58,081 bases of DNA from positions 1-58,081 of the forward strand of contig CACWNR010000010.1 of assembly GCA_902762355.1 (NCBI GenBank), read 5' to 3'. Positions within the stretch are counted from its first letter, which is position 1. Every line of letters starts with the position of its first letter. Shown one piece after another: positions 587 through 47,106 of this stretch. The notes under the pieces were generated by a model. That model saw only the letters and a program-made list of their open reading frames with translations, was not told the origin of the DNA and did no database searches. The position numbers and the translations under genes are program-made. Source of the stretch: an uncultured Bacteroidales bacterium (lineage in GTDB: Bacteria; Bacteroidota; Bacteroidia; Bacteroidales; Paludibacteraceae).

Positions 587-1174
587 ATGACGAAACAGGC
601 GGCGATAGTGGTTCCAGAGGGGTGTACGAGGGTGTTATTACACGCCTGTTGTGCGCCGTGCTCGAGTGCGATCGTGGAGTGGTTGATGGCGCATGGGATA
701 GAGCCGGTGATCTACTATTATAATCCGAACATTTACCCGCGCGAGGAGTACGAGATCCGCAAGAACGAAAGTAAGCGCCACGCGGAGTCGCTCGGCATCA
801 CCTGGATTGACGACGACTACTCCCACGATACCTGGCTGGAAGGTATATGCGGATTGGAGCAGGAGCCGGAACGGGGTAAACGCTGTGAGCGGTGCTTCTA
901 TATTCGGCTCAAAAAGACGGCCGAGAAGGCGCAGGAACTCGGTATCCGCTATTTCGCCACGACCTTGGCTTCCTCGCGCTGGAAGAGTCTGGAGCAGATC
1001 AACCGCGCAGGCATGGCAGCGCAGGAATCACTAAAACTAAATCCCCTAAGCCCTAAGCCCTTATTCTGGTCGCAGAACTGGCGGAAAGACGGGTTACAAG
1101 AACGACGCAACGAACTATTAAAAGCATATGGATTCTACAATCAGCAATATTGCGGGTGTGAGTTTAGTCACTAA
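587..1174 (+). CDS. queH: Epoxyqueuosine reductase QueH
   Basis: QueH reduces epoxyqueuosine to queuosine in the wobble position of tRNAs (cytoplasmic). The 195-residue protein has the family's cysteine pairs: C21-C22 in HACCAPC, C100/C103 in RCERC, and C189/C191 near the end in YCGCEF, which bind the metal centre. I chose the ATG at 587 over an upstream TTG (575) because it sits 22 bp after a good -7 box. Residues about 149-159 (LKLNPLSPKP) replace the usual loop before FWxQNWRKDG and are encoded by a CCCTAAG heptamer tract. The 3' end overlaps the following antiporter gene by 47 bp if that gene starts at 1128. Confidence 0.93.
   Translation: MTKQAAIVVPEGCTRVLLHACCAPCSSAIVEWLMAHGIEPVIYYYNPNIYPREEYEIRKNESKRHAESLGITWIDDDYSHDTWLEGICGLEQEPERGKRCERCFYIRLKKTAEKAQELGIRYFATTLASSRWKSLEQINRAGMAAQESLKLNPLSPKPLFWSQNWRKDGLQERRNELLKAYGFYNQQYCGCEFSH
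1030..1064 (+). repeat. Heptamer tract (CCCTAAG type) inside queH
   Basis: Five consecutive 7-bp units fill 1030-1064; the last three are CCCTAAG, CCCTAAG, CCCTTAT, the first two more degenerate. The tract is translated in queH as a Pro/Leu/Lys loop just before the conserved NWRKDG region. It belongs to a set of heptamer tracts found across the window. Confidence 0.7.
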
Positions 1175-3014
1175 CTCCTTGGCGATCATCGCGCTGGTGA
1201 TGCTAACGATTTTGGTGATACCAATGATATGCCGTAAGATCCGCATCCCGAGCATCGTGGGTTTTATCCTCGTGGGAACGCTCGTCGGGCCTTACGGTCT
1301 GAACCTGCTCGCGGGCATCGATGCCATCCAATCGCTGGGCAAAATAGGCATGTTGTACATCATGCTGCAAGCGGGTATCGAAGTGGATATAAATGACTTC
1401 CGTCAGCAGCGAACGCACTCGATTGTTTATGGCTTTTATTCCTTCGCGTTGCCTTTTGTGCTCGGATTACTCACCAGCCGGTTGTTAGGATTCGGTTGGG
1501 TAACCAGCACGCTGATGGGTGCGATGTACGGTTCGCACACGCTGATGACCTACCCCATCGTGAGCCGTTACGGCGTACAGAAAAACGCGGCGGTTAACAT
1601 CGCCATCGGTGGTACGATGCTGACGATCACGCTCTCGCTCTTGGTACTTGCATTCTTGAAGTCGAACTTCGTTTATACGGACGCCATCACAACCGGCGGA
1701 TTGATAGCACGCATCTTAGCCACCATCGTCACAATCACAATCATCTTCCCTTGGTTGGCACAACGTATCTTCAAGCGCTGGACAGATCCGAACACAGGCT
1801 TCCTGGTAGTGATGACGATGATGCTGGTGTCTGCTCTCATGGCAGAATGGGCAGGTCTGGAAGGCATTTTGGGTGCGTTCATCTGCGGCGTGAGTCTCAA
1901 CCGCTTGGTTCCTAACCTGAGCCCGGTGATGATGCGCATCAACTTCGTGGGAAACAATATCTTCGTGCCGCTCTTCCTGATCGGCGTGGGCATGATGATC
2001 GACCTGTCGCTGCTGTGGGAAGGATGGATCACGATCATCATCGCGTTCGTGATGATTGCCACGAAATTAGTGGGCAAATGGAGCGCGGCATGGTTGGCAC
2101 AGAAGAGTTTCGGTTTGCAACCGGTGGAGCGGCAGATCATGTTCGGTTTGACGCACGCCACAGCAGCCGGTACATTGGCCATCGTAACCATTGGTTACGA
2201 GACGGGCATTTTCAATGCCGAGATCCTGAACGCGGCCGTGCTGATGATCCTCGTGCTCTGTACCTCGGCTTCGTTCATCACAGAGTACGCCGCCAAGCAG
2301 TTGGCGCTGCAGGAAGAGGCACGTATCGAAGCGGATAAGACGGACGACACTTGGCAGTTGATGACCGTGGGTGAGAACAGGCATTATGAGTTACGCGAGT
2401 TGGCGGAGTTGGGTGAACTCCCCGCCCCCTCTTTCGCGGTGGAAGATGAGTGGTCGGGTGCAATGCAGTTGGTTAACAGCCAGCGCACGGCATCGATCAT
2501 CTACCACCCGAATCAACCCATTAACACGATCAACCGCCTGTTGGTAGCTGTTCCGCGTTATGCGGAGAAAGAGCACGATTTCATTACGTGCTTCGGTCTG
2601 GTGCGTCGTCTGAGCAGTCAGATAGGCGCGAAAGTGGTTTTCTTCGCCAATGAAGACACCCAGAAAGTGATTCAGACTTTCTGCCGCCGTAAGGGCAAGT
2701 ACCTGCGGGCATCGTATCGCGAGATGGAGGACTATGAAGACGTACTGATGATCGCCAAACAGATGGCTCCGGACGACATGATCGTGATGATCAACGCGCG
2801 GCCTTCCACCCCATCCTACAACCCGCTGTTTGAGCAGGTTCCGACGATGTTAGAGCGCTTCTTCAGCGACCACAGTTATATAGTCGTTTACCCCGAACAG
2901 GAGACAGGTTCAGCGATCCCCGACATGATGAGCGGAGACACGCCACAGGCGAGTCGTACATGGAAAGTAGTTAGCTGGCTGAAACAGAAGATCTTATCTT
3001 TTCAACAAAGATAA
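1128..3014 (+). CDS. CPA2-type cation/proton antiporter with C-terminal Usp-like domain
   Basis: Predicted inner-membrane monovalent cation:proton antiporter of the KefB/NapA class (CPA2). Residues about 15-400 form some twelve hydrophobic segments, with family patterns such as PSIVGFILVGTLVGP, LYIMLQAGIEVD and SHTLMTYPIVSRYG. Residues about 400-610 are soluble and resemble a universal-stress-protein fold (NRLLVAVPRYAEKEHD...DDMIVMINARPSTPSY), an arrangement common for these transporters in Bacteroidetes. The ATG at 1128 lies within queH (47-bp overlap); a start a few codons downstream (GTG near 1158) is possible, as the first residues are not clearly conserved. It probably shares the queH transcript. 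Its 3' end overlaps the convergent exosortase gene by 44 bp. Ion specificity cannot be read from sequence. Confidence 0.85.
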   Translation: MDSTISNIAGVSLVTNSLAIIALVMLTILVIPMICRKIRIPSIVGFILVGTLVGPYGLNLLAGIDAIQSLGKIGMLYIMLQAGIEVDINDFRQQRTHSIVYGFYSFALPFVLGLLTSRLLGFGWVTSTLMGAMYGSHTLMTYPIVSRYGVQKNAAVNIAIGGTMLTITLSLLVLAFLKSNFVYTDAITTGGLIARILATIVTITIIFPWLAQRIFKRWTDPNTGFLVVMTMMLVSALMAEWAGLEGILGAFICGVSLNRLVPNLSPVMMRINFVGNNIFVPLFLIGVGMMIDLSLLWEGWITIIIAFVMIATKLVGKWSAAWLAQKSFGLQPVERQIMFGLTHATAAGTLAIVTIGYETGIFNAEILNAAVLMILVLCTSASFITEYAAKQLALQEEARIEADKTDDTWQLMTVGENRHYELRELAELGELPAPSFAVEDEWSGAMQLVNSQRTASIIYHPNQPINTINRLLVAVPRYAEKEHDFITCFGLVRRLSSQIGAKVVFFANEDTQKVIQTFCRRKGKYLRASYREMEDYEDVLMIAKQMAPDDMIVMINARPSTPSYNPLFEQVPTMLERFFSDHSYIVVYPEQETGSAIPDMMSGDTPQASRTWKVVSWLKQKILSFQQR

Positions 3015-4579: not shown

Positions 4580-4587
4580 TCCGGCTG

Positions 4588-4619: not shown

Positions 4620-4624
4620 AAAAA

Positions 4625-6458: not shown

Positions 6459-7765
6459 TGGCACAAAAACCAAGCATACCCAAAGGCACGCGTGACTTCA
6501 GTCAACTGGAGATGGCGCGCCGCAATTATATCTTCGACACCATCAAAGGTGTCTTCTCTTTGTATGGTTTTCAGCAGATCGAGACGCCGGCCATGGAGAA
6601 CCTGTCCACGCTGATGGGCAAGTACGGCGAGGAAGGTGACAAACTGCTCTTCCGCATCCAGAACAGCGGTGAGAAAGCCGCGTTGGCTCCGGAGAAAGGT
6701 CTGCGTTATGACCTGACCGTTCCGTTTGCACGCTACGTCGTGCAGCATCGCGAGGAGTTGAGTTTTCCGTTCAAGCGTTTCCAGATCCAACCCGTTTGGC
6801 GTGCTGACCGTCCGCAGAAAGGACGTTACCGTGAATTCTACCAGTGCGACGTCGATGTGATCGGTTCTGACAGCCTCATCGGCGAACTCGAACTGATCCA
6901 GATCGTAGAAGAGGTATATCGCCGTTTGGATATCAACGTGTGCCTGCATATCAACAACCGCAAGATCCTCGCCGGTATAGCCGAAGTGATCGGTGCACCG
7001 GAGATGATCGTAGATATCACCGTGGCAATCGACAAACTCGATAAGATCGGTATCGATGCCGTCAATGCGGAATTGAAAGAAAGAGGACTGAATGACGAAC
7101 AGATCGCCGCTTTGCAACCGATCCTGAACCTCAGCGGTACCACCGCCGAGAAACTTGCTGCCCTCAAAACGATTCTTGCCAACAGCGAGATCGGTCTGAA
7201 GGGCGTTGAAGAGATGGAAATCGTGTTCGACGAATTGGAGAATGTAGGTTGTACATTGAATATTGAACTCGATCTGTGTCTCGCGCGCGGACTTAATTAT
7301 TACACAGGCGCGATTTTCGAGGTGAAGGCTCTGGACGCACAGATCGGCTCGATCACCGGTGGCGGTCGCTATGACAACCTGACGGGTATCTTCGGACTTC
7401 CGGGTGTCTCGGGCGTAGGTATCTCGTTTGGTGCAGATCGTATCTACGATGTGTTGAACGAGTTGAATCTCTTCCCGAAGGAATTGCAATCTTCAACACA
7501 AGTGCTCTTCGCTACTTTTGGTCAAGACGAATTACATTATGCGCTCCGTTGGGCCAAAGAGTTACGGGCTAAGGGTATCGCCGTAGAGGTGTATCCTGAG
7601 CCGACGAAGATGAAGAAGCAGATGGGGTATGCGGATGATAAGAAGATCCCGTACGTAGCCATCGTGGGCGGTAACGAGATGGAGACCAATACGGTCATGC
7701 TGAAAAACATGGCTACGGGCGAACAGAAACAAGTAACATTGGACGAGTTATGCACGATACAGTAA
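6458..7765 (+). CDS. hisS: Histidine--tRNA ligase
   Basis: Charges tRNA-His with histidine (cytoplasm). Length 435 residues, close to the bacterial class II HisRS norm. Visible: N-terminal KGTRDF, motif 2 around [20 protein letters not shown], the HisA signature [21 protein letters not shown] with motif 3 near [14 protein letters not shown], and a C-terminal anticodon-binding domain ([11 protein letters not shown] to the end). Starts with TAATG overlap on waaA and its 3' end overlaps the next gene by 16 bp. Confidence 0.97.
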
Positions 7766-16763: not shown

Positions 16764-17680
16764 TGCGCGGCCTCGTCATCAAATCTACGGGTAGCTGTTA
16801 CATCGTTCGAATGGACGATGGTTCGGATGCGGAATGTCATATCAAAGGCAATTTCCGCATCCGTGGCATCCGTAGTACCAATCCCGTGGCTGTGGGCGAC
16901 TTCGTCGAGGTACAGACACTCGCGGACGGTACCAAATGGATTACAGAGATAGAAGACCGGCGTAACTATATCATCCGCCGCTCAACGAACCTCAGCAAAG
17001 AGAGTCATATCCTCGCTGCCAATATCGACCAAGTAGCATTAATCGTTACGGTCAACCATCCCGTTACTTCTACTACTTTCATCGATCGTTTCCTCGCCAC
17101 CTGTGAGGCCTATCGCGTGCGCGCGATCCTTATCTTTAATAAGATCGACCTACTCACGGAAGAGGAACTTGCTCAACTCGCCGAACTCCGTGCCCTCTAC
17201 GAATCCATCGGCTACGAGACGATGGAACTTTCAGCGATCAGTTGTCAGCCTTTAGATGTTATGCCTTTATTAGAAGGTAAGACAACATTACTCTCCGGTA
17301 ATTCCGGTGTCGGCAAATCTACCTTACTCAATGCCCTTTTCGGCCGCGAGATGACGCGTACCGGTAAGATCTCCGATGCCCACGACAAAGGAATGCATAC
17401 GACGACCTTCTCGGAGATGTACTTCCTACCCGATGGCGCAATCATCGATACCCCGGGTATCAAGGGCTTTGGCACCATCGATTTCCAGCGCGAAGAAGTA
17501 AGTCATTATTTCCGCGATATCTTTGCTGTCAGCCGCGACTGCCGTTTCGGTAACTGTACGCACACCAACGAACCTGGTTGTGCCGTACAAGAAGCCATAA
17601 TAAAAGGATCCATAGCGATCTCGCGCTATGAATCCTATCTATCCCTTTTAGGTGATTGCGACGAGGGGAAATACCGTTAA
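16763..17680 (+). CDS. rsgA: Ribosome small subunit biogenesis GTPase RsgA
   Basis: Circularly permuted GTPase that acts in late 30S maturation. 305 residues. N-terminal OB-fold; G4 NKID at 126-129 precedes G1 GNSGVGKST at 179-187 and G3 DTPG at 229-232, the diagnostic permuted order; Zn-binding knuckle C260, C265, H267, C273. The stop codon lies in the heptamer tract at 17676-17703, so the C-terminal residues (about EGKYR) border repeat DNA. Last gene of the plus-strand run; convergent with korB. Confidence 0.97.
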
Positions 17681-17703
17681 CCGGTAACCCGTAACCTGTC
17701 CCC
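17676..17703. repeat. Heptamer tract (GTAACCC/GGGTTAC type) at rsgA/korB junction
   Basis: Four 7-bp units cover 17676-17703 (GTTAACC, GGTAACC, CGTAACC and a degenerate fourth). The tract supplies the rsgA stop codon and fills the 24-bp gap to the convergent korB stop. The same GGGTTAC unit occurs inside a glycosyltransferase (33302-33336) and an amylase (34427-34461). Confidence 0.75.
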
Positions 17704-17704: not shown

Positions 17705-18745
17705 CTACATCTCCCAACTCTCCAGCGTACCGGTCAGTTCATCGAAGGTCTTTGCCTTCGCTTTTTCTCTAACCTCTGCTATCTGTGCGTTCACCGCAAC
17801 GTCGTAAGTCTCTGCCTCTACATTACGAATCACACCCAGGGCGATCGGAAGGTTGTCCTCCACTTCTGCGTTGACATTCTCGATGCGGTTTTGACCCATC
17901 AGCGCTAACATACGATGGAGCGTCGTGTCCGCTTGATGAGCGTCATGCACGAGCACACGCGGGTCATCTGCCGGTACGACAATCATCTTCGGCACAAAAG
18001 TAACAGGGTCGATTTCCACCGCCAAGCCTTTGTCTTTATCCTTACCGAAGATCATCTTCTCACCATGCTTGAGGATGATACTGTGCTCTGCGCGCTGCTC
18101 ACGGTCAGCGATCCATGCATGCGTGCCGTTATTGAAGATCACGCAGTTCACAAGGCACTCCACAATCGAGCAGCCCTTATGCTGCTGTGCTGCTACGAGA
18201 CAATCTACCGTCGTCGGCATATCTACATCCAGCGTGCGGGCGAAGAACGTACCGCGGGCGCCGAGCACGAGTTGCGCCGGAATGAACGGACGCTCCACCG
18301 TACCGAACGGACTCGATTTGCTCACAAAGCCCTTCGGGCTTGTCGGGCTGTACTGACCCTTCGTCAGACCATATATGCGGTTGTTGAACACGCATACATT
18401 AAGGTCTACATTACGACGTATCTCATGGATAAAATGGTTACCTCCGATAGCAAAACAATCGCCGTCACCGGACATCTGCCAAACGGTCAGTTCCGGATGA
18501 CTGGTCTTCACACCCGTTGCTACAGCGCCACCACGACCATGGATCGTGTTGAAACCGTAAGTATTCAGATAGTGCGGCATACGACTCGAACAACCTATAC
18601 CCGATATCACTGCCACCTCATGTGTCGGGATGCCAATCTGCGCCATCGCTTTTTGCAGCGCCATGCATATCGCATGATCACCACAACCCGGGCAGAAACG
18701 TACGTATTGATCTGATTTAAATTGACTTGCTTCCATACTTATCAT
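17705..18745 (-). CDS. korB: 2-oxoacid:ferredoxin oxidoreductase, beta subunit
   Basis: TPP-binding subunit of a KorAB-type enzyme that oxidatively decarboxylates a 2-oxoacid (2-oxoglutarate is the usual substrate for this pair) to acyl-CoA with reduction of ferredoxin. 346 residues. FCPGCGDH near the N-terminus, SGIGCSSRMPHY, and the TPP/Mg motif GDGDCFAIGGNH...VFNN. The start may be the ATG at 18745 (4-bp ATGA overlap with korA) or the ATG three codons later (18736). No [4Fe-4S] ferredoxin subunit is adjacent. Confidence 0.92.
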   Translation of the reverse strand: MISMEASQFKSDQYVRFCPGCGDHAICMALQKAMAQIGIPTHEVAVISGIGCSSRMPHYLNTYGFNTIHGRGGAVATGVKTSHPELTVWQMSGDGDCFAIGGNHFIHEIRRNVDLNVCVFNNRIYGLTKGQYSPTSPKGFVSKSSPFGTVERPFIPAQLVLGARGTFFARTLDVDMPTTVDCLVAAQQHKGCSIVECLVNCVIFNNGTHAWIADREQRAEHSIILKHGEKMIFGKDKDKGLAVEIDPVTFVPKMIVVPADDPRVLVHDAHQADTTLHRMLALMGQNRIENVNAEVEDNLPIALGVIRNVEAETYDVAVNAQIAEVREKAKAKTFDELTGTLESWEM

Positions 18746-22402: not shown

Positions 22403-22403
<1 letters not shown>

Positions 22404-22437
22404 GTAACCAATGACAAATTACAAATAACAAATTTTT
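22403..22437. repeat. Heptamer tract (AATTACA type) between lepA and antiporter gene
   Basis: Five 7-bp units from 22403 to 22437; the central ones are AATGACA, AATTACA and AATAACA. The tract occupies most of the 39-bp gap between the lepA stop and the next ATG. Confidence 0.7.
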
Positions 22438-27877: not shown

Positions 27878-28621
27878 TTAGTTTCGTCCGATGACCTGGC
27901 CGCGAAAGCGCAAGTCTAATTCCGCATATTGTTTGGCTTGTACCTCTTCGGGACTTTTCTCGAGGAAAGTGCGTAGTTTAGCCAGTTTCTGTTCGTAACG
28001 GCTCATGTTACCCAATACCGCCCGCGGTTGGTTCTCGCCGCGCATATAGACGTACACCATCTGCGGCGATTGTACATGCACATGATGCACCCGTTCCCGC
28101 CAGTATTTGTTGTCTTGCAACCACTCGGCAAAATCCGCCAGTTGGTGCGCTGCGAACTGTGTACCTACCGCACCGGTCACCACCAGCACTTTATCCGTCA
28201 CGGCCGTGCGTACGGGCATCACCCGGCGGTCGGTATCAATGAAATAGATATCCCCCGGCATCTGGACACGCAGCAGCGGCACGCGCTGGGTCAGGCGCAC
28301 CCGTACCTCGTAACGCGGTGTGACGAAACACTCTGCCGTACGCACCATCGGATGATGCAGGATGGCCTTCTCGATGCGGTAGATGAGTCCGCGGTCTAAC
28401 GTGCGGCCTACGGGGTAGATATTCTCCGTCACCAGCAACTGATTCAACTCGTTCGGCGTCAGGTACAAACGCTCGTTCTGATCCTCAATGATATAGGTCA
28501 GCGTGCGGCAAGGCTGCTCCGTCGGGCGCATACGTACGCCCATGACCACCGCTGTGATCAGCAGCGCCGCCACAAGGCTCACACCTACACTCTTCCATAT
28601 GATACGAGCTGTGTTACTCAC
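27878..28621 (-). CDS. ftsQ: Cell division protein FtsQ/DivIB-type
   Basis: Bitopic inner-membrane division protein. 247 residues: short cytoplasmic tail, membrane helix about 10-30, then a POTRA-like periplasmic region (TLDRGLIYRIEKAILHHPMVRTAECFVTPRYEVRVRLTQRVPLLRV) and FtsQ beta domain. Identified by that pattern plus its place between murC and ftsA. The start is GTG at 28621, directly after a heptamer repeat tract, leaving no recognisable Shine-Dalgarno sequence. Confidence 0.88.
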   Translation of the reverse strand: MSNTARIIWKSVGVSLVAALLITAVVMGVRMRPTEQPCRTLTYIIEDQNERLYLTPNELNQLLVTENIYPVGRTLDRGLIYRIEKAILHHPMVRTAECFVTPRYEVRVRLTQRVPLLRVQMPGDIYFIDTDRRVMPVRTAVTDKVLVVTGAVGTQFAAHQLADFAEWLQDNKYWRERVHHVHVQSPQMVYVYMRGENQPRAVLGNMSRYEQKLAKLRTFLEKSPEEVQAKQYAELDLRFRGQVIGRN

Positions 28622-28622
28622 A

Positions 28623-28650
28623 AATCTAAAATCTTAAATCTTAAATGCTT
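28623..28650. repeat. Heptamer tract (AATCTTA type) at ftsQ/murC junction
   Basis: Units AATCTAA, AATCTTA, AATCTTA and a degenerate AATGCTT lie at 28623-28650. On the minus strand the tract encodes the last residues and stop codon of murC and then runs to the ftsQ GTG. The 26 bp at 28621-28646 are identical to 29765-29790 inside murC. Confidence 0.8.
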
Positions 28651-29986
28651 GTGCCACTTGAGGAACAAGCCTATCTATATCTCCAGCACCAACGGTCAGG
28701 ATCACTACCGGCTCTTGGCACTCCGCCACGCGTTTCTTCAGTTCTGCCACCAGGTCTTTCTTCTCCACCACCTGTCCGCCGAGCATCTCACTCGTCACAC
28801 CGGGTATCGGTTCTTCACGCGCCGGGTAGATAGGCAGCAGAATCAGTTCATCCATCGTATGCAATACCCTACTGAAATCTGCCGCGAAATCGCGTGTACG
28901 GGTATAGAGATGCGGTTGGAAGACACCTATCAACTTGCGCTCCGGGAATAATTTACGAACGGAATCGATGGCGGTCGCAATCTCCTGCGGGTGATGGGCA
29001 TAATCGTCGATGTACGCCACCTTCGGTGTATGAACGTGGATGTTGAACCGCCGCCAAACGCCCTTGAAGGATGCCATCTGTTTCTTGATCTGCTCCGCCG
29101 ACACACCCGTTAACAAAGCCACTGTGATCGCCGCGATCGCGTTCTCTATATTCACCCACACGGGTACGCCAAGGGATATATCCCGAATGGTCGCCAAAGG
29201 CGATACATAATCGAAAGTGATCTGTCCGTTCGCGATGCGGATGTTCTCCGCATTGTCCATGCCATACGTATAGCACTTCACGCCCTGCTGTAAGCGCGGT
29301 TCTAACTCGATGCCCTTTTTCATCACCAGCGCACCGGTGATCAGACTCGTGTAATGAGCAAACGCCTCGCGATAGGCTTCCGGTGTTCCGTATATATCCA
29401 AGTGATCGGCATCGACAGCCGTCACCACCGAGATGTAGGGCGTCAGATGATGGAAAGAGCGGTCGTACTCATCTGCTTCCACCACCACATACTCGCTCTC
29501 TTTGTCCAACAGCAGGTTCGTATGATAATTCATACTGATGCCGCCGAGGAAGGCATTCGTGGGGTGTAACAGATGCGCTATCATCGTGCTGGTCGTGGTC
29601 TTACCATGCGTACCGGCCACACAGAGCGCCTTCATCTGCCGCGTCACGAGCCCTAACACCTCCGCGCGTTTGCGGATATCGAAGCCCTGCTCGCGCAGAT
29701 AGGTATAGATGCTGTTTTGCTCCGGAACGGCAGGCGTACGCACTACTAACGTATCCGCAGGAGACAAATCTAAAATCTTAAATCTTAAATCTTCAATCCT
29801 CAAATGATCGTCCCCATAGACGATCGCTATCCCCTCGTCCTCCAGTTCTTTGGTCAGCGCGGAAGGCGTACGGTCGTAACCGGAAATAGCGTATCCGCGG
29901 TGGTGAAAATAGCGCGCCAAGGCACTCATTCCGATGCCTCCGATACCCAAGAAAAAGATATTTCGTATGTCGCTTTGCGAAATCAT
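28634..29986 (-). CDS. murC: UDP-N-acetylmuramate--L-alanine ligase
   Basis: Adds L-Ala to UDP-MurNAc in peptidoglycan precursor synthesis. 450 residues. N-terminal Rossmann motif FFLGIGGIGMSALA (about 11-24), ATP loop AGTHGKTTT (124-132), EADEYDRSF, and HHPQEIATAIDS. The ATG at 29986 (MISQSDIRN) follows its promoter; residues upstream are promoter sequence. Residues about 62-75 (LRIEDLRFKILDLS) are encoded by a heptamer repeat tract and its C-terminal AFKI ends in a second copy of the same tract. Confidence 0.95.
   Translation of the reverse strand: MISQSDIRNIFFLGIGGIGMSALARYFHHRGYAISGYDRTPSALTKELEDEGIAIVYGDDHLRIEDLRFKILDLSPADTLVVRTPAVPEQNSIYTYLREQGFDIRKRAEVLGLVTRQMKALCVAGTHGKTTTSTMIAHLLHPTNAFLGGISMNYHTNLLLDKESEYVVVEADEYDRSFHHLTPYISVVTAVDADHLDIYGTPEAYREAFAHYTSLITGALVMKKGIELEPRLQQGVKCYTYGMDNAENIRIANGQITFDYVSPLATIRDISLGVPVWVNIENAIAAITVALLTGVSAEQIKKQMASFKGVWRRFNIHVHTPKVAYIDDYAHHPQEIATAIDSVRKLFPERKLIGVFQPHLYTRTRDFAADFSRVLHTMDELILLPIYPAREEPIPGVTSEMLGGQVVEKKDLVAELKKRVAECQEPVVILTVGAGDIDRLVPQVAQAFKI
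29767..29801. repeat. Heptamer tract (AATCTTA type) inside murC
   Basis: Five contiguous 7-bp units at 29767-29801 (AATCTAA, AATCTTA twice, AATCTTC, AATCCTC as written on the plus strand). It is translated in murC between the Rossmann half and the conserved TLVVRTPAVP segment. Confidence 0.85.
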
Positions 29987-31423: not shown

Positions 31424-32527
31424 CAACTGATCCTCCAGCATATAGACGTGCTCCATGGGGATACCATGATCCACCAAAGCGCGTCGGTCGGGACGGAAGA
31501 GCGAGAAGAACTCTTTCGACGTTCCGCATAGTTTGCGGGCTTGTTTATAGTTCTCAAATGCCATCATCCGATCGCCTCGCATCAGCAGACAATGGGCATA
31601 GTTGATATAGTCCATCGGTTTGTTCGATCCGTCCCGCAGGTGCTCCAGAAAGACTTTCTCCGCGATGTCCGGATACGTCCACATCATATCACGAACACCG
31701 GCTTTCAGACAATGGAAAGCGAACTTACGCTCGCGCTCCGTGGAGCCTTCAATGAGCAAAGCATAGAGCCAGGTCTCGGGTATGAGCGGGATGAGTTGGG
31801 ACACATATTGCTCGTTGCCGCCGGGTAACATCTGCATAATCATTTCGTTACGAATGAGGGCGCAGAGCAGGTCAAACACATGTTCGCCGCTGTCATTCTC
31901 ACCTATTGCCGCTGCGAAAGCGTCTTGTATCTGCGGGAAGAAATCGATGCGTACGTCGTATTGAACGAGCAGCATCAGCGTGTGCGCCACGCACATGCCG
32001 GCCGCCATCTCGTTCTCGGAGTTGATGCCGTCGATGAGTGCCAAAAAGGAGTCAATAGAGAAACAGGTGCGGAGATTAAAGGCCATGCCGGTGACGGCGA
32101 TCAAAGCGATCTCCGTACGATTCGGGTCGTTCAACACGTCATGGAACCACTGGTAGTCCTCCGGCCGCAAGCGCACGCAGTTCTCGAAATAGTGCATCAC
32201 CGACTGCGCCGAGTCTCCGTTGAAGCCGTGCATCTCCGGTGACAGACCGCGCCTAAGACGGATATCCGCATAGACCGCATCCACCAACTGGTAGGCATCG
32301 CCGGTCATCTTGCTCAGTTCTTCGTCGGCGTTGGGGTCATCGATATTGAGCCAGTGGGTGAACAAGTCGCGGTACCGCGTCTGCAGCGAGGTATACGCCT
32401 CTTCATAGGGGTTGTTCTCCCCTATTTCGTTGAGCCATGACCGCACGACGACCAGCGCCGTGTCGATCATACATTCGCCTAACGCCCGCTCAACAACCGC
32501 TACTTGTTCCTCCAAAGATTGTGCCAT
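31406..32527 (-). CDS. Conserved helical-repeat (TPR-like) hypothetical protein
   Basis: 373 residues, no signal peptide or membrane helix, almost entirely alpha-helical with Leu/Ala-rich pairs and a C-terminal TPR-like stretch (INYAHCLLMRGDRMMAFENYKQARKLC). I do not recognise a function. It starts with a one-base TAATG overlap on the DPM1-like glycosyltransferase, so the two are likely co-translated. The 3' end overlaps the convergent PagL-like gene by 18 bp. Confidence 0.7.
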   Translation of the reverse strand: MAQSLEEQVAVVERALGECMIDTALVVVRSWLNEIGENNPYEEAYTSLQTRYRDLFTHWLNIDDPNADEELSKMTGDAYQLVDAVYADIRLRRGLSPEMHGFNGDSAQSVMHYFENCVRLRPEDYQWFHDVLNDPNRTEIALIAVTGMAFNLRTCFSIDSFLALIDGINSENEMAAGMCVAHTLMLLVQYDVRIDFFPQIQDAFAAAIGENDSGEHVFDLLCALIRNEMIMQMLPGGNEQYVSQLIPLIPETWLYALLIEGSTERERKFAFHCLKAGVRDMMWTYPDIAEKVFLEHLRDGSNKPMDYINYAHCLLMRGDRMMAFENYKQARKLCGTSKEFFSLFRPDRRALVDHGIPMEHVYMLEDQLLESNA

Positions 32528-33492
32528 TAGATCTCTTCTTTGATCAGATAGTCGTTACGGCTCGGGCTGTTGCGAATCACGAGTTCTGCCAGGAAGCCCG
32601 CCAAGAACAGCATACAACCCAAGATCATCATCAGGATTGCGATGTGGAAATACGGGTTGACGCCCACGAGCATTGCCGGTACACCGTTCGACAGGGCGTA
32701 GAGCTTCATACTGCCTACTACGATGACGGCGATGAAACCGATAAAGAACATCAGACTGCCCACGAGACCGAAGAAATGCATCGGTTGTTTGCCGAACTTA
32801 TTGAGGAACCACAAGGTCATCAGGTCGAGGTAACCGTTCACGAAGCGATTGATACCGAATTTAGACGTACCGAACTCGCGTTTGCGATGCTGAACGACCT
32901 TCTCGCCGATCTTCGTAAAACCGGCATTCTTCGCCAGATACGGGATGTAACGGTGCATCTCGGAGAAAACCTCGATGTTCTTCACCACCTCGTTGCGATA
33001 AGCCTTCAGACCGCAGTTCATATCGTGCAACTGAATACCCGTCACCTTACGCGCAGTGGCGTTAAAGAGCTTGGACGGCAGGTTCTTGGTCAGTTTGTTA
33101 TCAAAGCGTTTCTGCTTCCAACCACTCACGAGGTCGTAGCCATCGACCATGATCATGTTGTAGAGCTCGGGGATCTCGTCCGGCGAGTCCTGCAGATCGG
33201 CGTCCATCGTGATCACCACATCGCCCTGCGCAGCCTTAAAACCGCAGTACAACGCAGCGCTCTTGCCGTAGTTACGACGGAAACAGATACCACGAACGTG
33301 CTCATCCCGTAACCCGTCACCAGTAACCTGTAACCCCTGGATAACTCGCCAAGAGTCATCAGTGCTGCCGTCATTCACAAAAAAAACCTCGTAGGAAAAC
33401 TTGTTCTCCTTCATCACGCGTGCTATCCACTCATAGAGTTTCGGCAGCGATTCCGCCTCATTAAACAGAGGTACTATAATTGAAATATCCAT
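32527..33492 (-). CDS. DPM1-like family 2 glycosyltransferase with two C-terminal membrane helices
   Basis: 321 residues. GT-A domain with SIIVPLFNEAESLPKLY, FFVNDGSTDDSW, the DxD-type metal site in ITMDADLQDSPDEIP (about 95-107) and the HRKREFGTSKFG segment; then two membrane helices (about 236-260 and 275-310). Such enzymes transfer a sugar to polyprenyl phosphate (ArnC/GtrB/DPM1 type) at the cytoplasmic face; the sugar is unknown. Residues 53-63 (GLQVTGDGLRD) are encoded by a heptamer tract and interrupt the usually compact region between DDSW and GICFRRNYGKSAAL. Distal gene: helical-repeat protein. Confidence 0.9.
   Translation of the reverse strand: MDISIIVPLFNEAESLPKLYEWIARVMKENKFSYEVFFVNDGSTDDSWRVIQGLQVTGDGLRDEHVRGICFRRNYGKSAALYCGFKAAQGDVVITMDADLQDSPDEIPELYNMIMVDGYDLVSGWKQKRFDNKLTKNLPSKLFNATARKVTGIQLHDMNCGLKAYRNEVVKNIEVFSEMHRYIPYLAKNAGFTKIGEKVVQHRKREFGTSKFGINRFVNGYLDLMTLWFLNKFGKQPMHFFGLVGSLMFFIGFIAVIVVGSMKLYALSNGVPAMLVGVNPYFHIAILMMILGCMLFLAGFLAELVIRNSPSRNDYLIKEEI
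33302..33336 (-). repeat. Heptamer tract (GGGTTAC type) inside glycosyltransferase gene
   Basis: Five 7-bp units at 33302-33336; on the coding strand the clear ones are GGGTTAC, AGGTTAC, TGGTGAC and GGGTTAC. Translated as GLQVTGDGL. The same tract in the same frame is present in the amylase gene 1.1 kb away on the other strand. Confidence 0.85.
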
Positions 33493-33534
33493 AATTCTTA
33501 ACTAACGTTCGATTATTTCAAACTTTTGCGGGTG

Positions 33535-33566
33535 CAAAAGTACAACAAAAAAATGACATATGCAAG
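33535..33566 (-). promoter_or_regulatory. Proximal promoter of the glycosyltransferase gene
   Basis: Minus strand: CTTG (33566-33563), 20-bp spacer, TACTTTTG (33542-33535). Extended -33 TTGCATATG. Leader to the ATG is about 40 nt. Confidence 0.7.
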
Positions 33567-33598
33567 CGTATGCCATTCTTTTCGCGTTTTTTTTCGCG

Positions 33599-33719
33599 TT
33601 TTCATCTTATGAGTTATATATCATTGTTATATTTTTACTATGCCGTTCATATGATAATCTTATGTGATTCATATGTTATTCTTATGTTATTGTTATGTTA
33701 TTCCTATGATATTTTCATA
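33599..33719. repeat. Degenerate 11-bp tandem array
   Basis: About eleven consecutive 11-bp units; the clearest six run from 33643 to 33708 and end in TATG, e.g. TTATTCTTATG and TTATTGTTATG. On the minus strand each unit begins CATA. The period is not a multiple of three and there is no ORF. Confidence 0.75.
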
Positions 33720-33796
33720 ATTACCATCTAATCATCTCCTTATCATTACGTACATTTCTGTACCGTTTTAATTACATACTTAGAAAAAATCTGCTG

Positions 33797-33829
33797 CAAA
33801 GATACAACAAAAAAAATGACATATGCAAA
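33797..33829 (-). promoter_or_regulatory. Distal minus-strand promoter reading through the 11-bp array
   Basis: Minus strand: TTTG (33829-33826), 21-bp spacer, TATCTTTG (33804-33797), extended -33 TTTGCATATG. Transcription from here would start near 33790 and cross the 11-bp array before reaching the glycosyltransferase gene about 300 bp away. It could be an upstream promoter of that gene or drive a small RNA. Confidence 0.6.
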
Positions 33830-33845
33830 TAAAAATGCACAAAGA

Positions 33846-33877
33846 TTTGCATATATGCAAAAGTTTTACTATCTTTG
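33846..33877 (+). promoter_or_regulatory. Promoter of the GH13 lipoprotein pair
   Basis: TTTG at 33846-33849, 20-bp spacer, TATCTTTG at 33870-33877. The -33 box is part of the palindrome TTTGCATATATGCAAA. The ATG at 33899 is 21 bp after the -7 box. Confidence 0.75.
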
Positions 33878-33898
33878 CAGCGCAAAATATGTGGAACC

Positions 33899-35956
33899 AT
33901 GAAAGAGTCTATTAAAAAGTCTATTTTTCTTCTTGCTTTTTCCCTATGTCTGGTAGGGTGTCAACAACACAATCACATGGCCGGAACGATCGGTGCATCG
34001 AATCCTATTATGCCTATTCGGATGACGAGCGACACGATGCATGTCGTGCTGACCGATTACGTGCCGGCGTTGTTCGGTGATCTCAAGGCGTGGAAAGGTC
34101 TGAAGTGGACGACGAGTGAGTCGGTTGAGTGCCTGAACATTAGCGGTGCAGCGCCGATCATCGAAGAGATGGATATCGTTAACCGCGATCGGTCGATCCA
34201 TGCGTTCACGATGCACGACAAGAGCGGTAGTTTTGCCATCCCTATCCTACCCAACAAGCCCGTTCGGCAGGCCTTAATCTCCTTGGGCTATGCGGATGAA
34301 AAACTCATCTTCGGTTTCTACGACGGCGTAACGAATCCGAGTTTTGAGGTCTATATCCAGAACACGCTCATCGACCATGAGCGCATCAGCGCCAATGAGG
34401 ATGGGACATGGGTATTGGATCTGAGCGGGTTACAGGTTACGGGTAACGGGTTACAGGGACGCACGTATCTGCGGATCTTTGCCGAGGATGACCAATACCT
34501 GTACAACGACCTGTTGCTGCCGATGCAGGATGGTCAAATCATCAACGACGCGGCACAACTGAACCGTCATGACCAACAGGCGCAGGTGCTCTACTCGCTG
34601 ATGATCGACCGTTTCTACAACGGGAACAGCGCCAACGACTGGAAGATGAACTCGCCGGAAGTATTGGATATCGTGGATTATCAGGGCGGCGACCTCGCCG
34701 GTATCACGAAGAAGATCACGGAGGGCTATTTCGACCTGCTCGGCGTGAACACAATATGGATCAGCCCGATCACGCAGAACCCGTGGGACGCATGGGGCTG
34801 CTATGAGTTCAAGAACGGCAATAAGTACGACAGCACGAAGACCTACACCCGCTTTAGCGGTTATCACGGCTACTGGCCTATCTTCGCGACGAAGTTAGAC
34901 GATCGTTTCGGTACGCCGGACGAGTTCCGCACCTTATTGGACACCGCGCACGCGCACGGGATCAACGTGGTGCTCGACTACGTGGCGAACCACATGCATA
35001 TCAACTCCCCGACCCTGACGCAACACCCCGATTGGCATACAGATTCGATCCTGCCCGACGGCCGTCGTAACTTCGAGTTATGGGATGAAGCACGCCTAAC
35101 GACGTGGTTTGACAAACATATCCCGACGCTGGATCTGGAGCGCGAGGAGGTATGCGAGCAGATGACGGACAGCGCGCTGTACTGGTTGGAGAACTACGAG
35201 TTGGATGGTTACCGTCACGATGCGTGCAAGCATATTCCGGAAGGCTACTGGCGTATGTTAGGCCAGAAGATCGCGACGCGTTGGCCGGGACGTCCTATCT
35301 GGATGATCGGCGAGACCTACGGCAGCCCGGAGCTCATCGGCAGTTATGTGAAGACCGGTATGCTGAATGCGCAGTTCGATTTCAATGTGTATTTCACGAC
35401 CCGCGAGGCCTTGATGGGTCTGACCGGTATGGATCAGGTGCTTCAAAACGAGTTGACGTCGCTCCGTACCTACGGTGCGCACCACACGATGGGTAACATC
35501 AGCGGTAACCACGACCAGATACGTTTTGCTTCTATTGCCGGCGGTGCCATTGATATCCATTCACAAGGTAAGGAAGAAGGTTGGACACAGGAAGTAGGCA
35601 TCGGCGATGCGGAGACGGCTTATAAGCGCGCGCTGCTGCTCGAGGTAATCAACCTGACGTTGCCCGGCGTGCCGTGTATCTACCAGGGCGACGAGTACGG
35701 CGAGGTAGGCGGCAATGACCCCGATAACCGCCATATGATGCGCTTTGACAACATCAACGAGCAGGAGAAGGCGATGCGCGACAAGGTAGCGGAACTGATC
35801 CATTACCGCCGTCACTCGATGCCGCTGCTCTACGGCGATATGATTCCGCTGATCGACCGTCCGGACGAGATCATCTACCAACGTGTGTACCTCGGTCAGA
35901 AAGTTACTGTCATCATCAACCGCAACGAATTAACCTATCAAATAATTGAAGACTAA
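33899..35956 (+). CDS. GH13 alpha-amylase family lipoprotein
   Basis: 685-residue lipoprotein: signal with lipobox LVGC (Cys21). An N-terminal beta-rich region (about 40-215) precedes the GH13 barrel (about 225-640): VLYSLMIDRFYNGN, DYVANH at 360-365, nucleophile Asp441 in DGYRHDA, acid/base Glu472 in IGETYG, and NHDQ at 537-540 with Asp539. Likely degrades starch or related alpha-glucans at the cell surface or in the periplasm. The heptamer tract at 34427-34461 encodes GLQVTGNGLQG (177-187), at the junction of the N-terminal region. Coupled by TAATG to the next GH13 gene. I start at ATG 33899 because it begins the signal peptide. Confidence 0.9.
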   Translation: MKESIKKSIFLLAFSLCLVGCQQHNHMAGTIGASNPIMPIRMTSDTMHVVLTDYVPALFGDLKAWKGLKWTTSESVECLNISGAAPIIEEMDIVNRDRSIHAFTMHDKSGSFAIPILPNKPVRQALISLGYADEKLIFGFYDGVTNPSFEVYIQNTLIDHERISANEDGTWVLDLSGLQVTGNGLQGRTYLRIFAEDDQYLYNDLLLPMQDGQIINDAAQLNRHDQQAQVLYSLMIDRFYNGNSANDWKMNSPEVLDIVDYQGGDLAGITKKITEGYFDLLGVNTIWISPITQNPWDAWGCYEFKNGNKYDSTKTYTRFSGYHGYWPIFATKLDDRFGTPDEFRTLLDTAHAHGINVVLDYVANHMHINSPTLTQHPDWHTDSILPDGRRNFELWDEARLTTWFDKHIPTLDLEREEVCEQMTDSALYWLENYELDGYRHDACKHIPEGYWRMLGQKIATRWPGRPIWMIGETYGSPELIGSYVKTGMLNAQFDFNVYFTTREALMGLTGMDQVLQNELTSLRTYGAHHTMGNISGNHDQIRFASIAGGAIDIHSQGKEEGWTQEVGIGDAETAYKRALLLEVINLTLPGVPCIYQGDEYGEVGGNDPDNRHMMRFDNINEQEKAMRDKVAELIHYRRHSMPLLYGDMIPLIDRPDEIIYQRVYLGQKVTVIINRNELTYQIIED
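34427..34461 (+). repeat. Heptamer tract (GGGTTAC type) inside GH13 gene
   Basis: Five 7-bp units: GGGTTAC, AGGTTAC, GGGTAAC, GGGTTAC and a degenerate fifth. Translated as GLQVTGNGLQG. Near-copy of the tract in the divergently transcribed glycosyltransferase gene. Confidence 0.85.
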
Positions 35957-43725: not shown

Positions 43726-43742
43726 AAGCCTAACTATTTACG

Positions 43743-44129: not shown

Positions 44130-44153
44130 AGTTTTATTTTTACAATTTGGGCG

Positions 44154-44185: not shown

Positions 44186-44220
44186 CGCGCGAGCGTTTTT
44201 CGGAATTTTTTCTACTTTTT

Positions 44221-44252
44221 CTTGCGTATGTGATTTTTTTTTCGTACCTTTG
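44221..44252 (+). promoter_or_regulatory. fbp promoter
   Basis: CTTG at 44221-44224, 20-bp spacer, TACCTTTG at 44245-44252; extended -33 TTGCGTATGTG. The fbp ATG (44274) is 21 bp after the -7 box. Confidence 0.7.
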
Positions 44253-44273
44253 CGCCATAAAGCCGGTATAGCC

Positions 44274-46223: not shown

Positions 46224-47078
46224 CTATACGAGAGCCTTTACGAGGCTCTCTTTTGTTCCCGGAAGCAGGTCAATAGGTGCCAATTCAATCATCGTCTTTG
46301 CCCCATACTCTCCACGCTCTTTGAGGCGTATTGCCGCACGCGCACAAGACACCATAACCTGACCGGTCAAGGCCGGGTTATTGATGGTCATATTAAACTC
46401 AAAACGCTGGTTATGGGTCACGCCGGAAACGCCGTTACGAACGAGATTCACCCCATGCGCCACGTTATTGAGGGCATCGACGCTCTCCACAGGAATGACA
46501 TGCGTCTCATCGTGTACGAAATAGTCGTCTGCGAGTATTGCTGCTTCAACCGCCTTTAAGTCTGCGCCATCTTCGAGTTCGACATACACCATACGACGAT
46601 GAATACCCGTGCCCAAAGGAATGGTCATGGAAAGCGCATTCTTGACGCCGGGTTTGGACTTAGCCGCCACGGTGTGCCCCATCGAACGACCAGCTCCAAA
46701 GTTCGTGTAGGTAAGCCCTTTCGGCGCCAAAGCCAAGAGGATAGCACGGATCATCGAATCCGATCCGGGATCCCAGCCGGCAGAGATGATGCTGACGGCT
46801 TTATTGGCCTTACAAACTGCGTCTAAGTTCTCACGCAAGTTCCATATTTGTCCATGGATATCGAAACTGTCCACGGTGCAGATGCCGCGTGCTGCCAAAA
46901 CAGTTGCAAACTTTTGCACCTCACGTGTCGGCGTACATACGAGTACGACATCCGCGTCGATACAATCGAGGCAATCATTGTGGTGATAAATGCCGGCAAA
47001 CTCCATATCCGGAGCGGCTTTGATGGCTTCTTCAGCTGCACGGCCTATGTTGCCGTAACCGAGGATCGCTACTTTCAT
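46224..47078 (-). CDS. ddh: meso-diaminopimelate D-dehydrogenase
   Basis: Single-step NADPH-dependent interconversion of tetrahydrodipicolinate and meso-diaminopimelate. 284 residues. Rossmann start VAILGYGNIGRAAEEAI, CTPTREVQKFA, DSFDIHG, SAGWDPGSDSMIRA, NFGAGRSMGHTVA, GTGIHRRMVYVE and INNPALTGQV. It is shorter than typical enzymes (about 300-320): the segment after AGIYHHND lacks about 20 residues. It is distal to glmS, separated by a 28-bp heptamer tract. The 3' coding region contains the hairpin that terminates fbp. Confidence 0.9.
   Translation of the reverse strand: MKVAILGYGNIGRAAEEAIKAAPDMEFAGIYHHNDCLDCIDADVVLVCTPTREVQKFATVLAARGICTVDSFDIHGQIWNLRENLDAVCKANKAVSIISAGWDPGSDSMIRAILLALAPKGLTYTNFGAGRSMGHTVAAKSKPGVKNALSMTIPLGTGIHRRMVYVELEDGADLKAVEAAILADDYFVHDETHVIPVESVDALNNVAHGVNLVRNGVSGVTHNQRFEFNMTINNPALTGQVMVSCARAAIRLKERGEYGAKTMIELAPIDLLPGTKESLVKALV
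46230..46257 (+). terminator. Terminator of fbp, located inside the ddh 3' coding region
   Basis: Stem GAGAGCC (46230-46236) / GGCTCTC (46244-46250), 7-nt loop, then TTTTGTT. On the other strand the same bases encode the last codons of ddh (ESLVKAL). Confidence 0.75.
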
Positions 47079-47106
47079 ATTTGATTTATGATTTATGATT
47101 TCAAAT
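47079..47106. repeat. Heptamer tract (TTATGAT type) filling the ddh/glmS gap
   Basis: Exactly four 7-bp units (ATTTGAT, TTATGAT, TTATGAT, TTCAAAT) occupy the entire 28-bp interval between the ddh ATG and the glmS stop codon. Confidence 0.75.

What the first reader, a model, noticed from the sequence alone, without database searches (positions are those of the whole stretch)
1030..47106. A family of short heptamer-unit tracts scattered through genes and gene junctions
At least seven tracts are built from contiguous degenerate 7-bp units: 1030-1064 (CCCTAAG), 17676-17703 (GTAACCC), 22403-22437 (AATTACA), 28623-28650 and 29767-29801 (AATCTTA), 33302-33336 and 34427-34461 (GGGTTAC), 47079-47106 (TTATGAT). 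They are mostly four or five units (28-35 bp) long, differ in unit sequence yet share the 7-bp period, and sit both inside conserved genes and exactly at stop/start junctions. Simple slippage would not be expected to give the same period and length with different units. Known comparisons are cyanobacterial heptanucleotide STRRs and Rickettsia palindromic elements inserted in ORFs, but I know of no described equivalent in Bacteroidales.
Basis: partly seen in the sequence, partly recalled or inferred. Interest (0 to 1): 0.8.

Follow-up and report, generated by a model that had tools for sequence, protein, structure and literature searches.

The report
Seven-base repeat tracts in genes
One group of uncultured gut bacteria carries well over a hundred short arrays of seven-base repeats, squeezed into variable stretches of core proteins and into the tiny gaps between neighbouring genes; the arrays look placed rather than grown from the local sequence, and how they get there is unknown.

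Summary
In an 858-kb sample of the window's genome (44%) I find 111 period-7 tracts. Periods 4-6, 8-10 and 12 give 1-22, period 11 gives 27, simulated sequence 0. Gene sequences hold 64; synonymous-codon shuffles of them hold 1-5. Most tracts are 24-37 bp, with a sharp drop above. 63 of 111 lie inside genes, three or more of them in conserved enzymes of the window; 44 of the other 48 lie in gaps between co-directional genes, mostly tight ones; divergent (promoter) gaps hold one. Relatives carry different heptamer units at the same protein stretches and junctions, or none. In 17 of 46 protein comparisons the tract-bearing protein is longer by 3 or more residues; 10 go the other way. Each genome has favourite units, and their abundance differs sharply between congeners. 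Sites without a tract do not resemble the unit (37 comparisons). I found no target duplication and no universal RAYT, reverse transcriptase or Cas1 gene. Heptanucleotide repeats are already described in Xanthomonas, Nostoc, Beggiatoaceae and five Bacteroidetes, including Paludibacter: a new variant of a known kind. My reading is recurrent templated placement followed by one-unit slippage; pure slippage remains a serious rival.

The parts
1044..1061 (+).
   Evidence: ortholog in L189 (G005) is 2 aa shorter at the site
17673..17696 (+). Heptamer tract (GGTAACC type) across the stop of an RsgA-type GTPase gene (16811-17680 +) and the 24-bp convergent gap to a 2-oxoacid:ferredoxin oxidoreductase beta-type gene (17705-18664 -)
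22407..22433 (+).
   Evidence: the orthologous junction of G002 (132 bp) carries another unit
28622..28646 (-). Heptamer tract (AAATCTT) that holds the murC stop codon and fills the 12-bp junction to the next gene (27878-28621 -)
   Evidence: in G005 the two genes overlap by 8 bp and have no tract, in G002 the gap is 26 bp without a tract
29766..29803 (-). Heptamer tract (AAATCTT) inside murC (28634-29950 -), encodes LRIEDLRFKILDL in a variable stretch that carries tracts of other units in 5 of 17 other MurC sequences
33306..33335 (-). Heptamer tract (GGGTTAC) inside a glycosyltransferase gene (32527-33492 -; best NCBIfam match is below its cut-off), encodes GLQVTGDGLRD; 7 aa longer here than in the sister species G005
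34428..34461 (+). Heptamer tract (GGGTTAC) inside an alpha-amylase-family gene (33977-35956 +), encodes GLQVTGNGLQG; detector core 34428-34451
   Evidence: shared with G005 without length change
47073..47106 (-). Heptamer tract (TTATGAT) that fills the 28-bp gap between diaminopimelate dehydrogenase (46224-47078 -) and glmS (47107-48951 -); detector core 47073-47101

Best explanation
The tracts are short heptanucleotide arrays that one clade of Paludibacteraceae-type bacteria gains again and again. Shown here: they are DNA-level repeats of period 7; most are 24-37 bp long; they sit in variable stretches of proteins (probably surface loops; structure not tested) and in tight co-directional junctions; relatives often lack them or carry another unit at the same place; each genome uses a few units much more often than chance; sites without a tract do not look like the unit. 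Inferred: an array of about 3-5 units is placed in one event, templated on arrays elsewhere in the genome (for example by ectopic template switching while a stalled or broken DNA end is repaired), then changes by one-unit slippage and point mutation. Selection then removes placements that break reading frames or promoters. Inside genes the net change must keep frame; 21 bp (three heptamers, seven residues) is the simplest such step and is seen between the window's glycosyltransferase and that of G005. The enzyme and the reason for the number seven are not known.
For: Period and background. Length: 53 tracts of 31-37 bp but 2 of 38-44 bp in G000, 50 and 5 in G005, although simulated 6-unit arrays with 10% divergence are found 96% of the time. 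Dominant units: the top two unit classes hold 13 each of 111 tracts in G000; 200 draws of random 7-mers never gave more than 3. Species-level families: GGTTACN pattern hits (overlapping registers counted) number 92 in G000, 82 in G005, 161 in G345 and none in 29 of 61 genomes (the reversed control, itself a heptamer, hits 32, 13 and 54 times). Heptamer load varies in the genus: 34 tracts in 135 kb of 8 congeners rich by two unit patterns, 8 in 187 kb of 12 poor ones (p 3e-7; one rich stretch, G336, lay on a contig already known to have hits; without it 31 in 115 kb). No local seed: in 14 coding comparisons (11 tracts) and 23 junction comparisons the tract-free ortholog does not match the unit better than swapped units. 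Same site, different units: one MurC stretch in 6 of 18 sequences; the glycosyltransferase stretch; junctions such as L117/L193 with 24- and 26-bp gaps and unrelated units. The glycosyltransferase tract is 94% identical in the window and L033, against 82% for the main part of the gene, and the window's sister species lacks it.
Against: No donor array, enzyme or mechanism of placement is shown. Of 46 coding comparisons with a tract on one side only, 17 show a net gain of 3 aa or more, 10 a net loss of 3 aa or more and 19 neither; the median is 0, so many tracts overwrite rather than extend, or sit in stretches that vary anyway. In the glycosyltransferase, L165 and L034 have inserts of nearly the window's length with no tract. 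Among 19 comparisons without length change the ortholog does resemble the unit a little (6.79 of 10 against 6.39, sd 0.18), as decayed shared tracts or native seeds would. One MurC case (L031/L164) keeps about one and a half copies of the unit in the shorter ortholog. L028/L029 differ by exactly one 7-bp unit, plain slippage. The seed test has few cases, and the orthologs are only about 75-85% identical in DNA, so a seed could have decayed. The window/L033 likeness could be a recombined segment, since the 20 codons downstream are also close (88%). With distinct units counted once, the shared unit skeleton is only about 3-5 SD above shuffles. G021, rich by pattern, shows no tract in 40 kb. Shared descent of a tract followed by unit turnover could explain several same-site cases.
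Confidence: 0.45

Rival explanations
1. Local replication slippage with a strong preference for 7-bp steps. A chance 7-bp duplication grows and shrinks in place; no array moves.
For: One-unit difference between L028 and L029, and a seed-like remnant in L164. The 7-bp preference holds inside genes, where 6 and 9 would keep frame: exact lag-7 runs of 10 bp or more number 49 coding against 11 at lag 6 and 8 at lag 9. Orthologs of equal length resemble the unit slightly. The idea that 7 nt reflects the polymerase contact length is attributed to Mrazek 2007 in passages seen in PMC4679880 and PMC4692102. That 7-nt loops escape MutS is recalled, not tested; mutS1 itself is present in 25 of 25 genomes searched.
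Against: No resemblance of shorter, tract-free sites to the unit; few dominant units per genome, very uneven between congeners; sharp drop in length above 37 bp in G000 and G005 instead of a smooth decline (milder in G002 and other lineages).
Confidence: 0.33
2. The junction tracts are kept because they work in operons, for example as an A/T-rich ribosome landing stretch, a three-frame stop, or a protein binding site; the tracts in genes are by-products.
For: In G000, 44 of 48 non-coding tracts (47 with a resolved context) lie in co-directional gaps; divergent gaps are depleted (p 2e-6); tract density per base falls steeply with gap size; junction tracts are richer in A/T (GC 0.22-0.29) than gaps without tracts (0.36-0.37). 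Unit strand is biased 31:11 at junctions. Orthologous junctions: 9 with a tract in both genomes, 39 in one, 153 in neither, about twice the shared number expected by my arithmetic (4.0).
Against: More than half of the tracts are inside genes, where such a role cannot apply. Most junctions have no tract, and most with one have it in one genome only. Stops in all three frames: sense 14 and antisense 15 of 34 in G000, 12 and 12 of 26 in G002, though 34 and 14 of 54 in G005. The strand bias can come from gene calling, since a stop-free tract would read through.
Confidence: 0.12
3. A transposon-like or REP/RAYT-like mobile element, or an insertion made by a reverse transcriptase or Cas1.
For: Dispersed, size-limited, family-like, in genes and junctions. 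G000 has one partial Y1-transposase match just over the cut-off (25.2 against 23 bits). Direct 4-mer repeats flank tracts slightly more often than in shuffled pairs (0.300 against 0.251, sd 0.024).
Against: No excess of flanking direct repeats at 5 or 6 bases and almost no shared flank sequence over 277 tracts (in the 27 GTAACC-type ones a downstream base reaches 0.66 bits, probably the array running on). No foldback. No Y1-transposase match in G002, G003, G005 or G014, which carry tracts. Reverse transcriptase in 5 of 14 rich and 2 of 10 poor genomes; Cas1 in 2 of 14 and 4 of 10. The genomes are drafts, so single absences are weak.
Confidence: 0.06
4. Chance, codon bias or protein repeats.
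For: None found.
Confidence: 0.01

Closest known systems
GGGAATC / GGGGA(C/T)T heptamer repeats of Xanthomonas and Nostoc (Rehm et al. 2015, PMC4692102; 12 passages seen, two of them from the abstract)
   Same: Degenerate 7-bp units, preference for four units, spread over the genome, favoured between aligned ORFs and rare between divergent ORFs, same junctions reused between relatives with different sequence.
   Different: Here the units are many and mostly not G-rich (1 of 111 tracts has four GGG runs), so the same copy preference cannot be due to quadruplexes; over half lie inside genes; the unit repertoire differs from species to species.
TAACTGA direct repeats of Beggiatoaceae, Cyanobacteria and five Bacteroidetes incl. 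Paludibacter (MacGregor 2015, PMC4679880; abstract, sections 12, 15, 24 and passages seen)
   Same: Short heptamer arrays just before start codons, some across stop codons or in ORFs (one near the end of a MurG); other heptamers nearby in some Bacteroidetes; patchy distribution.
   Different: That genome uses one fixed unit, related heptamers are rare there and coding copies are mostly near protein ends; here 53 unit classes in 111 tracts, none of them TAACTGA, and many lie in the middle of conserved enzymes.
Heptanucleotide long simple sequence repeats (Mrazek 2007; seen only as cited in the two papers above)
   Same: Excess of unit length 7 in some prokaryotes.
   Different: Slippage is proposed there; here dominant units, a length limit and no local seed suggest placement.
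High short-tandem-repeat density of Bacteroidota (Genome Biol 2025, PMC12699852; three passages seen)
   Same: Bacteroidota stand out for repeat density, also in coding DNA.
   Different: The passages seen stress trinucleotide units and hold no mention of heptanucleotides.
Cyanobacterial STRR heptamers and the Nostoc tRNA-Leu intron heptamers (recalled; one listing seen)
   Same: Heptamer arrays with a degenerate unit, recalled as GATT-like.
   Different: Recalled mainly from intergenic DNA and an intron; not compared by sequence here.
Rickettsia palindromic elements (recalled; listing only)
   Same: Short repeated DNA inside conserved protein genes, kept in frame.
   Different: No foldback here, shorter, tandem 7-bp build.

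Membership tests
Heptanucleotide simple sequence repeats (broad class) | tandem 7-bp units above chance | tested here: met
   111 tracts against 0 simulated; 64 in genes against 1-5
Heptanucleotide simple sequence repeats (broad class) | length changes by whole units | tested here: met
   L028/L029 differ by one 7-bp unit; a single clear case
Heptanucleotide simple sequence repeats (broad class) | grow from a local seed | tested here: inconclusive
   No seed signal in 14 + 23 comparisons; slight signal in 19 comparisons without length change; one case with a remnant
G-quadruplex heptamer repeats (Xanthomonas/Nostoc) | four or more G-tracts | tested here: not met
   1 of 111 tracts has four GGG runs on a strand; 36 of 111 have four GG runs
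G-quadruplex heptamer repeats (Xanthomonas/Nostoc) | preference for about four units | tested here: met
   91 of 111 tracts are 24-37 bp, i.e. about 3.5-5 units
G-quadruplex heptamer repeats (Xanthomonas/Nostoc) | between aligned ORFs, rare between divergent ORFs | tested here: met
G-quadruplex heptamer repeats (Xanthomonas/Nostoc) | under-represented in coding DNA | tested here: inconclusive
   63 of 111 are coding, though coding is 92% of the sample
TAACTGA repeats | unit TAACTGA | tested here: not met
   absent from the 53 unit classes of G000
Rickettsia palindromic elements | palindromic, foldback RNA (recalled) | tested here: not met
   folding energy equals shuffled (difference -0.06 kcal/mol, sem 0.13)
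REP/RAYT elements | RAYT (Y1) transposase in the genome | tested here: inconclusive
   no PF01797 match in G005, G002, G003 or G014; one partial match in G000 just over the cut-off; drafts
Transposable elements | target-site duplication or shared ends | tested here: not met
   277 tracts: flanking direct repeats of 5 and 6 bases as in shuffled pairs, of 4 bases about 2 SD above; flank information at most 0.09 bits over all tracts
Cyanobacterial STRR | sequence relation to the described STRR units | not tested
   no STRR sequence was compared

The most novel reading that the evidence does not exclude
A dispersal process without transposase places ready-made arrays of 3-5 heptamers into transcribed DNA (variable stretches of proteins and tight operon junctions) of a bacterial clade. 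Arrays are templated on others in the same genome, so each species has its own heptamer dialect, and the process repeatedly rebuilds loops of essential enzymes, most simply in seven-residue steps.
Probability: 0.3. Interest if true: 0.82.

Novelty: new variant of a known kind. Interest (0 to 1): 0.62.

Why it matters
It separates the 7-bp preference from its two current explanations. The four-unit preference reported for Xanthomonas and Nostoc also appears here without G-tracts, so quadruplex formation is unlikely to be its general cause. And dominant, species-specific units with no local seed are hard to get from plain slippage. Because heptamer-rich and heptamer-poor species occur in one genus, the gene or process responsible can be sought by comparison. 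The tracts may also be a steady source of new stretches in core enzymes such as MurC.

Tried and rejected
Rejected: chance and codon effects; G-quadruplexes; foldback elements (the fold z-score used a bad divisor and is not used); reverse transcriptase and Cas1 as universal drivers; loss of mutS1. A RAYT driver is unlikely but not closed for G000 itself. Y-family polymerase was found in 13 of 14 rich and 6 of 10 poor congeners (p 0.12): no conclusion. The first skeleton fit (T-N-W-C-M-A-A) looked very strong but was mostly driven by repeated units; with distinct units it is modest, and Pedobacter L070 does not follow it.

One search tested shared junctions with each pair counted twice, so its p of 0.0003 is too small and I do not rely on it. 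The phylum-wide pattern scan (296 genomes; matches only partly listed) has a high reversed control in some genomes (54 hits in G000 itself, against 174 forward) and was used only to show that G000 is extreme for that pattern. It does not measure heptamer tracts in general.

Dropped before counting: tracts with N; coding tracts within 8 residues of a protein end; ortholog pairs of 45% identity or less; three of the 17 coding gains because the ortholog stretch was under 12 bases; junction differences outside 9-70 bp or with an ortholog gap above 60 bp. Genes were called by my own simple script, not by a standard gene finder. assign edge tracts differently, so their junction totals differ (48 and 37 in G000). 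'Rich' and 'poor' congeners were chosen by hits to two unit patterns. G336's stretch lay on a contig with known hits; G359, called poor, has 2 tracts in 3.6 kb; G021, called rich, has none in 40 kb. Of the 12 poor ones, the five covered match the window's murC only weakly, so load and clade are confounded there.


Full report
What was checked. The window is one 58-kb contig of a 1.94-Mb, 36-contig draft genome. Its closest named relatives by MurC are uncultured Bacteroidales and Paludibacteraceae, several from goat, sheep, yak and water buffalo. All eight tracts of the finding are there; the supported cores are given under parts.

Is it more than chance. In 858,081 bp of the genome (the window plus 40 stretches) a detector for lag-7 identity finds 111 tracts. 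The same detector at lags 4, 5, 6, 8, 9, 10, 11 and 12 finds 3, 1, 18, 16, 22, 2, 27 and 19, and one Markov simulation 0. Within gene sequences there are 64. If synonymous codons are reshuffled and the protein kept, five runs give 2, 1, 1, 3 and 5; with codon order shuffled, none. So the repeat is in the DNA, not just in the protein. Two 50-kb stretches of E. coli K-12 give none. Two congeners behave alike: G005 has 113 tracts in 538 kb and G002 53 in 380 kb. In 16 further loci of close relatives (L022-L036, L047) period 7 gives 64 tracts and no other period from 4 to 12 more than 12. In 64 other Bacteroidota loci the excess is milder: 65, against 37 for period 6 and 36 for period 12.

Length. 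In G000 the tract lengths fall as 14 (17-23 bp), 38 (24-30), 53 (31-37), 2 (38-44), 1 (45-51), 1 (52-58) and 2 (59 or more); G005 gives 16, 35, 50, 5, 2, 1 and 4. Simulated arrays of six units with 10% divergence are detected 96% of the time, so the drop after 37 bp is not a detection limit. In G002 and in other lineages the decline is softer.

Where they lie. In G000, 63 tracts are coding, 15 straddle a gene edge and 33 are intergenic. Of the 48 non-coding ones, 44 lie in co-directional gaps, 2 convergent, 1 divergent and 1 unresolved, although divergent gaps make up 19.2 kb of the 64.4 kb of gap sequence (p 2e-6 for divergent against co-directional). With tracts assigned by mid-point, 22 lie at 293 co-directional junctions with 15 bp or less outside the tract, 8 at 109 of 16-60 bp, 3 at 85 of 61-150 bp and 1 at 66 wider ones. 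In G005 the fraction per junction falls only from 19% to 12%, and in G002 the tightest junctions have fewer (5%) than wider ones (12-17%); the density per base falls with gap size in all three genomes. In 34 cases in wide co-directional gaps from the three genomes, 13 tracts lie within 15 bp of the upstream stop and 7 within 15 bp of the start, where uniform placement predicts 4.3 each.

What relatives show. Among reciprocal-best-hit protein pairs of the three genomes, 40 of 349 pairs carry a coding tract on one side or both. Of 58 comparisons 12 share the tract. Of the other 46, 17 show a net gain of 3 residues or more in the tract-bearing protein, 10 a net loss of 3 or more and 19 neither. 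Random segments of the same proteins give 7% and 6%. So tracts mark indel-rich stretches, and gains outnumber losses, but not overwhelmingly. The clearest gain is the window's glycosyltransferase: GLQVTGDGLRD is seven residues longer than in G005. At that stretch the window and L033 carry GGGTTAC, L028 AGAGTTG and L032 AAAGTTG (4 of 12 sequences at full threshold); L029 and L161 carry weaker heptamer runs; L152 (G005), L159, L164 and L031 have none and are 5-7 residues shorter than the window; L165 and L034 have none but are about as long. A tree of ten genes (3,394 columns, 12 species) puts the window next to L152 and far from L033. Yet the window's tract is 94% identical to L033's, against 82% for the main part of the gene, 88% for the 20 codons after it and 68% for the 20 before it. 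In MurC, 10 of 18 sequences have a tract; six species have one in the same stretch with different units.

Junctions. Of 201 orthologous co-directional junctions, 9 have a tract in both genomes, 39 in one and 153 in neither. Where only one has it, its gap is longer in 33 of 43 ordered comparisons (median +20 bp), shorter in 8 and equal in 2 (with a slightly different assignment). Of the nine shared junctions two have the same unit (L116/L184, and L017/L200 once strand is allowed for); the other seven differ at 2-3 of 7 positions even on the closer strand. L117/L193 have gaps of 24 and 26 bp filled with ATTTAAG and with TAACCCA units.

Units. The 111 tracts of G000 fall in 53 unit classes; the two commonest hold 13 each, whereas 200 draws of random 7-mers never gave more than 3. 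GGTTACN patterns (overlapping registers counted) hit G000 92 times, G005 82, G345 161 and 29 of 61 congeners never; the reversed control, itself a heptamer, hits these three 32, 13 and 54 times. GGTGATT-type patterns hit 46 of 61 genomes, from 1 to 108 times, with a control of 3 in G000. In fresh 3-20-kb samples, 8 congeners rich by these patterns show 34 period-7 tracts in 135 kb, and 12 poor ones 8 in 187 kb, where period 11 is commoner (16). Leaving out G336, whose stretch was on a contig with known hits, it is 31 in 115 kb. Not every case fits: G021, rich by pattern, has none in 40 kb, and G359, poor by pattern, has 2 in 3.6 kb. So tract load is a variable trait within a genus, partly tied to clade.

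Seed test. If tracts grew from local sequence, the ortholog without the tract should resemble the unit. In 14 coding comparisons (11 tracts) it scores 5.29 of 8 against 5.30 for swapped units, and in 23 junction comparisons 5.48 against 5.42 (p 0.11-0.40 over four word sizes). Cases are few. In 19 coding comparisons without length change the ortholog scores slightly above swapped units (6.79 of 10 against 6.39, sd 0.18). One close pair, L031/L164 (85% DNA identity), keeps about one and a half units where the other has a 38-bp tract, and L028/L029 differ by one unit in an intergenic tract. So slippage happens; the question is whether it also creates the tracts.

Mechanism. Over 277 tracts there is almost no shared flank, and flanking direct repeats of 5 and 6 bases are as in shuffled pairs, with 4-base ones about 2 SD above. 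There is no foldback. Reverse transcriptase and Cas1 are missing from most tract-rich genomes, and Y1 transposases from G002, G003, G005 and G014, while G000 has one borderline partial match. MutS1 is present in 25 of 25 genomes searched. I therefore think that arrays of a few units are copied from existing arrays into new sites during DNA repair or replication, then drift. That step is inferred. Pure slippage with a 7-bp bias stays a strong rival at about one in three. A role at operon junctions may add to retention but cannot explain the tracts in genes.

Known work. Rehm et al. (PMC4692102; 12 passages, two from the abstract) describe G-rich heptamer arrays in Xanthomonas and Nostoc with a four-unit preference and placement between aligned ORFs, and link the number four to quadruplexes. 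Only 1 of 111 tracts here has four GGG runs, so that link does not carry over. MacGregor (PMC4679880; abstract, three sections and passages) describes TAACTGA arrays in Beggiatoaceae, cyanobacteria and five Bacteroidetes, with Paludibacter among them. Both cite Mrazek 2007 for a general heptanucleotide excess; I did not see that paper. A 2025 survey (PMC12699852; three passages) finds Bacteroidota rich in short tandem repeats, also in coding DNA, without the word heptanucleotide in its text. Eight searches of the open-access library listed no title or abstract describing heptamer arrays of many units inside core genes of Bacteroidales; most subscription papers are not held.

Verdict. Real, widespread in one clade, and more than chance. 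It belongs to the broad class of heptanucleotide repeats but differs in unit diversity, in its place inside conserved enzymes, and in signs of placement rather than growth.

Noticed in passing
window 33658-33713 and 26 other places in the G000 sample: A second repeat class of period 11 (units such as AACCTATGTTT, CGACGGTCAAC, TCTTATGTTAT): 27 arrays, 23 of them non-coding by mid-point, one in the divergent gap 33493-33976 of the window. Heptamers are rare in such gaps.
   Followed up: partly
L070 (Pedobacter schmidteae MAG) 886-1256 and 7453-7691: Long heptamer arrays (up to 134 bp) in which the unit changes step by step along the array (TATCAGT, CAACAGA, ACCAAGA).
   Followed up: no
L107 6180-8090: One gene of 636 codons holds five separate heptamer tracts, of the AATCACC/AATCANA/CCAATNN kind, in the same orientation.
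   Followed up: no
window 57835-57881: Three near-perfect copies of a 16-bp unit TTTTTCTTGGGGGATT (96% match).
   Followed up: no
14 heptamer-rich against 10 heptamer-poor congeners: Y-family polymerase family PF00817 in 13 of 14 rich and 6 of 10 poor congeners, with two score groups; not significant.
   Followed up: partly
L007 3854-7192 and its orthologs in G002 (L177) and G005 (L187): At the site of a heptamer tract in G000, the G002 ortholog carries a longer in-frame insert with a repeated PASPDRxQTA-like motif and the G005 ortholog a different 20-residue insert, so the stretch takes several kinds of insert.
   Followed up: no
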